A stretch of 64,000 nucleotides of DNA, taken from the NCBI GenBank assembly GCA_016844945.1, contig JAERTJ010000086.1, forward strand, positions 100,180-164,179, given 5' to 3'. Under the pieces are notes generated by a model. It was not told where the DNA came from and ran no database searches. It was given only the letters and a program-made list of their open reading frames with translations. Both the position numbers and the translations under genes were made by a program. This document shows positions 11,148 to 12,266 of the stretch, in pieces (positions within the stretch are counted from its first letter, which is position 1; every line of letters starts with the position of its first letter). Source of the DNA: Fidelibacterota bacterium. GTDB taxonomy: Bacteria; Fidelibacterota; UBA8477; JABMPR01.

Positions 11148-11210
11148 AAAAACATTTGTCCATCGTTCGCTTTTGTCGTTGGCACCCCAAACGGTTGGAT
11201 TATTTTAATT

Positions 11211-12266
11211 ATGATGAATAAGAGTCTAGAAATAAATCTGACCGCCAAAGTCAAAGCCGCCGGCTGAGCAGGCAAAATTGGTCCAGGGGACCTGGGCGAC
11301 ATACTTTGCGGGATTGATATTTTATCACATCCTGACCTGCTCGTAGGGATTGACCATCGTGATGACAGCTCAGTGTACAAGCTCAGTGAAGATATTGCAA
11401 TTGTGCAATCCCTGGACTTTTTCACACCCATTGTCGATGATCCTTATACCTTTGGTCAAATAACGGCTGCCAACGCGTTTAGTGATCTCTATGCCATGGG
11501 GGCCAGGCCGGTCACTGCCTTGAATATTGTTGCTTTTCCTGTTGACGATTTGTCCAACTCTGTCCTTAAGGACATTTTGCGAGGCGGGATCAGCAAGATT
11601 AATGAATCTGGGGCGGTACTGGCAGGTGGACACTCCATAAAAGATGATGAACTCAAATATGGTCTCTCCGTAACAGGCACTGTTCATCCAGACAAGATTA
11701 TCTCTAACAAGGGGGCTCAAGCTGGAGATGTCCTCATCCTCACCAAAGCCCTGGGAACAGGGATCGTCGCAACCGCTCTCAAGCGAAAAGTTGCTACTGA
11801 TGAACAAGTTCAACCCATGGTTGAGAGCATGATTCAGCTCAATAAAATAGCCTCTGAAACGGCTCAGAATTATTCCATAAATGCCATGACGGATGTAACG
11901 GGGTATGGGTTGATTGGGCACCTGCTGGAGATGCTTGACTCAAGTTTTATGGATGCCAGAATATATGTGGATGATCTACCTCTACTACCCAGCGTTCTGG
12001 ATATGGCAGAAAAGAATATTGTTCCCGGTGGTTTATTAACTAATAAGAAATATTATCATCCCCGAGTCGCTGTTGGAAGTTTAGTCTCTGAAGAACAGGA
12101 AATGATTGCGGTCGATCCTCAAACTTCAGGGGGCTTGCTCATTAGCACACCGGCTGAAGCAGCTGATAAATTACTAAGTGATCTACATGCCAATGGGATC
12201 GAAATTGCTACAATCATCGGGGAGATCACAAACCCCAGCGCAGAACCACGAATTTCACTACAATAG
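11211..12266 (+). CDS. selD: Selenide, water dikinase containing selenocysteine (UGA at 11265-11267)
   Basis: SelD makes selenophosphate from selenide and ATP, the selenium donor for selenocysteine and selenouridine. Reading from ATG 11211 gives a short N-terminus, then AAG-TGA-AGKIGPGDL. The TGA is codon 19, exactly where SelD carries its catalytic Cys or Sec, with the essential Lys at 22. The frame then runs without interruption to 12266 (LVGIDHRDDSSVY, FTPIVDDPYTFGQITAANAFSDLYAMGARP, LAGGHSI, DVTGYGLIGHLLEM, DPQTSGGLL), giving 351 residues, the normal SelD length. Starting at the internal ATG 11373 would lose the active site and the ATP-binding N-terminus. A hairpin just 3' of the TGA supports readthrough. 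Only a weak ribosome site is seen. The gene implies selA, selB and selC elsewhere in the genome. Confidence 0.9.
11265..11297 (+). promoter_or_regulatory. Selenocysteine UGA with bacterial SECIS-like hairpin
   Basis: The TGA codon (11265-11267) is followed after 13 bases by GTCCAGG (11281-11287), loop GGA (11288-11290) and CCTGGGC (11291-11297): a 7-bp stem with one G-U pair. The loop starts with GG and lies 20 bases beyond the UGA. Bacterial SECIS elements are described as stem-loops inside the coding region with the apical loop roughly 16-37 bases after UGA and a G among the first loop positions, so this fits. Confidence 0.8.

What the first reader, a model, noticed from the sequence alone, without database searches (positions are those of the whole stretch)
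11211..12266. SelD is itself a selenoprotein, read through UGA with an internal SECIS-like hairpin
The frame from ATG 11211 is open to 12266 except for one TGA at codon 19, inside AAG-x-AGKIGPGDL, the exact site of the catalytic Cys/Sec of selenophosphate synthetase. A 7-bp hairpin with a GGA loop begins 13 bases after the TGA. An ATG-to-stop caller would report a truncated 297-residue protein. It shows the organism uses selenocysteine and suggests autoregulation of SelD by selenium supply.
Basis: partly seen in the sequence, partly recalled or inferred. Interest (0 to 1): 0.82.

Follow-up and report, generated by a model that had tools for sequence, protein, structure and literature searches.

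The report
Selenium-donor enzyme built with selenium
This uncultured marine bacterium encodes the enzyme that makes the cell's selenium donor with a stop codon at its catalytic site, which is predicted to be read as the selenium amino acid selenocysteine; this arrangement is already well known in other bacteria.

Summary
The frame is full-length SelD (TIGR00476, 373.9 bits) with one TGA at the catalytic Cys/Sec position. The genome carries selA and selB on the same contig and a tRNA-Sec; TGA also ends 13 of 34 long window ORFs. The best SelD match in 21 of 23 genomes of the order has this TGA. The 7-bp GGA-triloop hairpin fits the published bacterial SECIS limits. A codon-preserving test supports selection for it in 18 of 18 distinct order sequences against 2 of 32 Cys-type SelDs. 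Four further genes of this genome have an in-frame TGA at a redox-Cys site; three share SelD's layout, 7 bp plus a G[G/U]N triloop 17-22 nt after the TGA. Sec-containing SelD is long known; the autoregulation idea dates from 1996 and was not testable here. Verdict: well-supported new member of a known kind in Neomarinimicrobiota. Modest new points: a shared SECIS layout within one genome, and a SelD hairpin register that differs from that of other lineages.

The parts
   Evidence: TIGR00476 373.9 bits, cut-off 125; PDB relatives 3u0o, 2yye; start by congeners
11265..11267 (+). TGA codon at the catalytic Cys/Sec position, predicted Sec
   Evidence: aligned to the Cys of two solved SelDs; in the best match of 21 of 23 order genomes
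11281..11297 (+). predicted SECIS hairpin, register B: 7 bp with GGA triloop (loop 11288-11290)
   Evidence: -11.0 kcal/mol, mean pair probability 0.99; wobble constraint in 18 distinct order sequences
11280..11292 (+). alternative register A, GGUCC-AGG-GGACC, the helix shared with Sec-type SelDs of other phyla
   Evidence: outer four pairs form in 104-111 of 114 Sec-type sequences each; all five pairs in 56 of 114 Sec-type and 0 of 32 Cys-type; -7.0 kcal/mol in this gene
11373..12266 (+). truncated ORF (GTG start, 297 aa) that a stop-obeying caller reports; lacks the catalytic N-terminus

Best explanation
The gene is selD, and its TGA at the catalytic position is predicted to be read as selenocysteine, with the hairpin just downstream likely acting as the SECIS that recruits SelB and Sec-tRNA. 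Steps shown: SelD identity; TGA at the Cys/Sec site; the hairpin and selection for it at synonymous sites in the order; selA, selB and tRNA-Sec in the same draft genome; conservation across the order; other genes with a TGA at a redox-Cys site. Steps inferred: the ribosome inserts Sec there, the full-length product (350 residues) is the active enzyme, and its selenophosphate feeds SelA, including for its own synthesis. A dependence of SelD level on selenium would follow from this but is untested.
For: TIGR00476 over cut-off. selA, selB and tRNA-Sec found. SelD matched in 21 of 23 order genomes, each best match with one TGA at this position; selA over cut-off in 21 of 23; tRNA-Sec over gathering score in 21 of 23. 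Phylum: 128 of the 150 listed matches have one TGA, 22 none (my count; more matches are not listed). The hairpin meets the bacterial SECIS limits printed in PMC13188914 section 5: 3-nt loop, 7 bp, G first, spacing 20 nt, -11.0 kcal/mol. Synonymous-recoding test: p<0.05 in 18 of 18 distinct order sequences (this gene z -2.56, p 0.006), 35 of 96 other Sec-type, 2 of 32 Cys-type. Four of the five TGA genes found in this genome have 7 bp plus a G[G/T]N triloop, against 14 of 3243 window TGAs.
Against: The 59-base region is not unusually stable against dinucleotide shuffles (z -0.45). No Rfam family matches 11200-11400 even at E up to 1. 61 of 96 Sec-type sequences outside the order do not reach p<0.05 in the recoding test. 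One of five TGA genes (AhpD-like) lacks the 7-bp triloop. The tRNA-Sec lies on another contig (C10) and the bin has 6% contamination, although 20 of the 22 other order genomes also carry it over the gathering score. No expression or protein evidence exists.
Confidence: 0.95

Rival explanations
1. The TGA is a true stop: the gene is a pseudogene, or only the 297-residue downstream protein is made.
For: TGA is the stop of 13 of 34 long window ORFs; the ORF list and a database report the 297-aa ORF.
Against: The TGA and the frame on both sides of it are kept in the best SelD match of 21 of 23 order genomes; the catalytic motif around it is kept in all 21; Sec machinery is present.
Confidence: 0.02
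2. TGA is reassigned genome-wide (for example to Trp), so no Sec is involved.
For: Two database proteins of close relatives, P0003 and P0004, have W at this position, as expected of a caller using another code on short contigs.
Against: TGA ends 13 of 34 long ORFs in the window; Trp would be odd at a catalytic Cys site; a tRNA-Sec with anticodon tca is present.
Confidence: 0.01
3. The TGA is a sequencing or assembly error for TGT/TGC.
For: The genome is a draft of 234 contigs.
Against: Same TGA in 16 congeners and 4 further order genomes, and codon constraint concentrated in the hairpin.
Confidence: 0.005
4. Sec is inserted, but the working SECIS is register A (GGUCC-AGG-GGACC, loop 17 nt after the TGA), not the reader's 7-bp hairpin.
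For: Register A is the helix shared by Sec-type SelDs of other phyla: pair 18-24 is C-G in 111 of 114 Sec-type and unpaired in 32 of 32 Cys-type, and pair 17-25 is A-U instead of U-A in 2 of 114. All five A pairs also form in 17 of 18 order sequences.
Against: In this gene B is -11.0 against -7.0 kcal/mol, pair probability 0.99 for B and 0.00 for A. Wobble bases needed only by B are fixed in 18 of 18 order sequences while neighbouring codons vary. The one exception, L033 (Asp to Glu), keeps 6 of 7 B pairs but loses an inner A pair. Three other TGA genes of the genome have 7 bp plus a triloop.
Confidence: 0.1

Closest known systems
Sec-containing SelD of bacteria (surveyed in PMC1794560 and, for marine samples, PMC2398784)
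   Same: In-frame TGA at the catalytic Cys site of a full-length SelD, in a genome with selA, selB and tRNA-Sec. [quoted passage not shown] PMC2398784 (passages incl. [quoted passage not shown]
   Different: Host is an uncultured lineage whose named relatives are Neomarinimicrobiota. No Sec-type FdhA was seen: the 2 molybdopterin-oxidoreductase matches have no stop in the match.
Bacterial SECIS consensus model (bSECIS), as printed in PMC13188914 section 5
   Same: Loop 3 nt, stem 7 bp, G in the first loop position, spacing 20 nt, -11.0 kcal/mol: all printed limits met.
   Different: Narrower: four of the five TGA genes found in one genome share 7 bp plus a G[G/U]N triloop at 17-22 nt.
Cys-type SelD: single-domain forms and NifS-like/SelD fusion forms
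   Same: Same family and motif around the catalytic residue.
   Different: Cys codon, and the hairpin is not kept (all five A pairs 0 of 32, all seven B pairs 0 of 32, recoding test 2 of 32).

Membership tests
SelD (selenide, water dikinase) | Match over the curated cut-off of TIGR00476 | tested here: met
   373.9 bits against 125
SelD (selenide, water dikinase) | Catalytic Cys/Sec and following Lys in the N-terminal motif (their roles are recalled) | tested here: met
   U19 and K22 in AAG-U-AGKIGPGDL, aligned with AGCGCKISP (3u0o) and SGCAAKVGPGDL (2yye)
SelD (selenide, water dikinase) | Makes selenophosphate from selenide and ATP | not testable with these tools
   No biochemistry possible
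Bacterial selenoprotein gene | In-frame TGA at a site that is Cys in relatives, conserved among orthologues | tested here: met
   best match in 21 of 23 order genomes, 2 without a SelD match; 32 Cys-type relatives with TGT/TGC at the site
Bacterial selenoprotein gene | selA, selB and tRNA-Sec in the same genome | tested here: met
Bacterial selenoprotein gene | Downstream SECIS within the published limits | tested here: met
   against PMC13188914 section 5
Bacterial selenoprotein gene | Sec present in the protein | not testable with these tools
   Needs 75Se labelling or mass spectrometry
Rfam SECIS families | Match to an Rfam model | tested here: not met
   No match at E up to 1 in 11200-11400; not filed under any Rfam family
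Selenium-autoregulated gene | SelD output depends on selenium supply | not testable with these tools
   Old hypothesis; no data here

The most novel reading that the evidence does not exclude
This lineage has its own strict SECIS grammar, tuned to its SelB: a perfect 7-bp stem with a G[G/U]N triloop about 20 nt after the UGA, reached independently in unrelated genes (selD, selW-like, AhpC/TSA-like, thioredoxin-like). In selD it arose by sliding the ancestral GGUCC/GGACC hairpin three bases downstream inside an overlapping palindrome, so the recoding signal changed register while the protein motif stayed almost the same.
Probability: 0.4. Interest if true: 0.45.

Novelty: new member of a known kind. 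Interest (0 to 1): 0.27.

Why it matters
It makes it very likely that this Neomarinimicrobiota-type genome decodes selenocysteine, and shows how standard annotation loses the catalytic N-terminus of its SelD. The hairpin comparison gives a concrete, testable SECIS rule for finding further selenoproteins in this lineage. A SelD that would need its own product to be made is an old self-dependence question; it is present here but not solved.

Tried and rejected
Rejected: true stop, genome-wide reassignment and sequencing error (see rivals). Rejected: the idea that the hairpin alone forces the Asp of GPGDL. The DNA sample had Asp in 106 of 114 Sec-type and 0 of 32 Cys-type. But among the 27 stored proteins with a readable motif, leaving out the query and 3 with Trp at the site, 14 of 23 Cys-type proteins also have Asp. 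The Cys sample is 20 genes of this phylum plus 12 others, mainly clostridial, so it is a narrow control.

Rejected: SelD as the only selenoprotein; four more TGA genes were found. The own genome was searched for selenoproteins with only five other protein families (PF00384, PF00578, PF10262, TIGR03167, PF02627), so the list is not complete. No 2-selenouridine synthase over cut-off (24.1 bits against 219.75). No Rfam match. Raw folding energy against shuffles is not informative.

Dropped rows: 9 of 60 fetched stretches gave no readable motif and were left out. 129 Sec-type loci collapsed to 114 distinct 48-base sequences, which also removes the overlap of L048-L057 with order loci already held. 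Of the 80 loci, 57 were read and 22 more; two of these, mis-set by a second chance hit (L090, L100), were repaired and the last (L108) added. In one search the SelW motif read only the own gene; the looser one read 19 of 20 (L220 not read), and two chance hits in L213 and L214 were ignored. Chance read-through frames printed beside the named genes were ignored. The 34 ORFs were picked by me from the 80.

Full report
What is there. The frame 11211-12266 reads through as SelD except for one TGA at 11265-11267. TIGR00476 scores 373.9 bits against a cut-off of 125. In the alignment to solved SelDs the TGA falls on the first Cys of AGCGCKISP (3u0o) and the Cys of SGCAAKVGPGDL (2yye) (I recall these as the E. 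coli and Aquifex aeolicus enzymes). The start is more likely the second ATG, 11214, because all 16 congeners read have Met there and 2 of them have a Leu codon at residue 1. The neighbours are an alpha-amylase family gene and a gene with no Pfam match, both on the opposite strand, so selD stands alone.

The machinery. The window is contig C86:100180-164179 of a 4.73-Mb draft in 234 contigs, 90.69% complete with 6% contamination. selA (512.6 bits, cut-off 267.9) and selB (342.2 bits, cut-off 242.25) lie about 91-96 kb away on the same contig, with an Nramp-family gene between them. tRNA-Sec is on C10 at 72.8 bits against 47, and ARAGORN calls it tRNA-SeC, anticodon tca. In the 23 genomes of the order, selA is over cut-off in 21 (none in G225, a contig-end piece in G240) and tRNA-Sec is over gathering score in 21 (not in G224, G226). 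Named relatives are Candidatus Neomarinimicrobiota (L048-L057, 73-79% identity; two named proteins); the window's own record is not named to me.

Conservation of the TGA. SelD is matched in 21 of the 23 order genomes, and each best match has one TGA inside, read at the same position in all 21. The two without a match (G225, G239) are 86% and 63% complete. Over the phylum, 202 of 245 genomes have some match, weak ones to other families of the superfamily probably included. Of the 150 matches listed (more are not listed), I count 128 with one TGA and 22 with none; 20 of those 22 lie in frames of 736-762 codons. TGA is still an ordinary stop: 34 long window ORFs end in TAA 14, TGA 13, TAG 7. A database holds the truncated form of this gene (P0002, 297 aa); P0005-P0089 are 256-329 aa, and P0003 and P0004 show Trp at the site.

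The hairpin. Raw stability is unremarkable (z -0.45 against shuffles), so I tested it with the protein sequence held fixed. SelD DNA from 129 Sec-type loci (114 distinct) and 32 Cys-type loci was stacked without gaps from the TGA or Cys codon. In the 18 distinct order sequences (codons counted from the TGA as 0) Gly-5 is GGT 18 of 18, Gly-7 GGG 18 of 18, codon 8 GAC 17 of 18, the Leu-9 wobble base is G 18 of 18 and the codon-10 wobble base is C 18 of 18. The neighbouring Ala-1, Gly-2, Ile-4, Asp-11 and Leu-13 codons vary. With 500 synonymous recodings per sequence, the real sequence folds better than the null at p<0.05 in 18 of 18 order sequences (mean z -3.58; this gene z -2.56, p 0.006), 35 of 96 other Sec-type and 2 of 32 Cys-type. 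These sequences are related, so the counts are not independent events.

Two registers. Register A (GGUCC/GGACC) is what Sec-type SelDs of other phyla share. Its pair 18-24 forms in 111 of 114 Sec-type and 0 of 32 Cys-type, and its pair 17-25 is A-U instead of U-A in 2 of 114. A also forms fully in 17 of 18 order sequences, but the wobble bases that only B needs are fixed in 18 of 18. That A is the older register is an inference; no tree was made.

Other TGA genes of this genome. SelW-like (Rdx, CAVU, L198), AhpC/TSA-like (GWUPYC, L195/L201), thioredoxin-like (SYUGSC, L200) and AhpD-like (CHYU, L221) each have one in-frame TGA at what I know as the redox-Cys site of these families (Pfam support). 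PF00578 gave 14 matches, 2 with a TGA. The first three carry GCAACCA-GTT-TGGTTGC, ACAGTTG-GGT-CAACTGT and GTGCGGA-GGT-TCCGCAC at 22, 21 and 17 nt after the TGA, next to SelD's GTCCAGG-GGA-CCTGGGC at 20. AhpD-like has no 7-bp triloop. So 4 of 5 share the layout, against 14 of 3243 TGA triplets in the window. In the order, all 20 SelW-like matches (20 of 23 genomes) have one TGA; 19 of the 20 could be read, and 18 of these have the 7-bp stem with GTT or GTC loop 22 nt after the TGA; L202 does not; L204 has a two-sided change in the stem.

Known or new. Sec-containing SelD is long known: PMC1794560 (passages) calls FdhA and SelD the most widespread selenoproteins and mentions SelD as single selenoprotein in several species; PMC2398784 (passages) reports SelD among the commonest marine ones; PMC8318568 (passages) states that SelD itself contains Sec. 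The hairpin meets the SECIS limits of PMC13188914 (section 5 read). The autoregulation proposal is in the title of a 1996 paper, which I saw only in reference lists. One search (Marinimicrobia and selenoprotein) found two papers; (any two of five terms, 15 of 3,549 listed) put the same two first. In PMC8318568 the phylum stands in a list and a table of reconstructed genomes; PMC9012183, on KSB1, I saw in the listing only. The library lacks most subscription papers, so I claim no first report.

Verdict. Observation confirmed, main reading supported, autoregulation untested. New member of a known kind; interest low to moderate, raised slightly by the shared SECIS layout and the register difference.

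Noticed in passing
L045:340-2538 (G214), and rows with 736-762-codon frames: L045 is a cysteine-desulfurase-like (Aminotran_5) plus SelD fusion with Cys at the catalytic site. Nineteen more Cys-type SelDs of the phylum lie in frames of the same size but were not domain-checked. PMC2398784 (2008) had detected a NifS-SelD fusion only in one Geobacter (passage).
   Followed up: partly
G112, G113 (L151/L130, L183/L131); G094, G103 (L160/L189, L153/L186): Some genomes of the phylum carry both a TGA-type SelD and a Cys fusion-size SelD, and others two TGA-type SelDs; bin contamination is not excluded.
   Followed up: no
P0003, P0004, P0097: Database proteins with Trp at the Sec position, probably from contigs called with TGA as Trp.
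   Followed up: partly
L085, L099, L105, L110, L127; L152, L179, L188: These Sec-type SelDs do not form register A fully (GGC facing GAC, or GAG in place of GAC) and may use another hairpin register.
   Followed up: no
L221:1354-1926: AhpD-like gene with TGA in CHYU; best hairpins have 5 bp, one with loop TGGGT 16 nt after the TGA.
   Followed up: partly
L001:178-1440 (-), contig C86: An Nramp-family transporter gene (57.5 bits) lies between selA and selB; a link to metal or selenium supply is only a guess.
   Followed up: no
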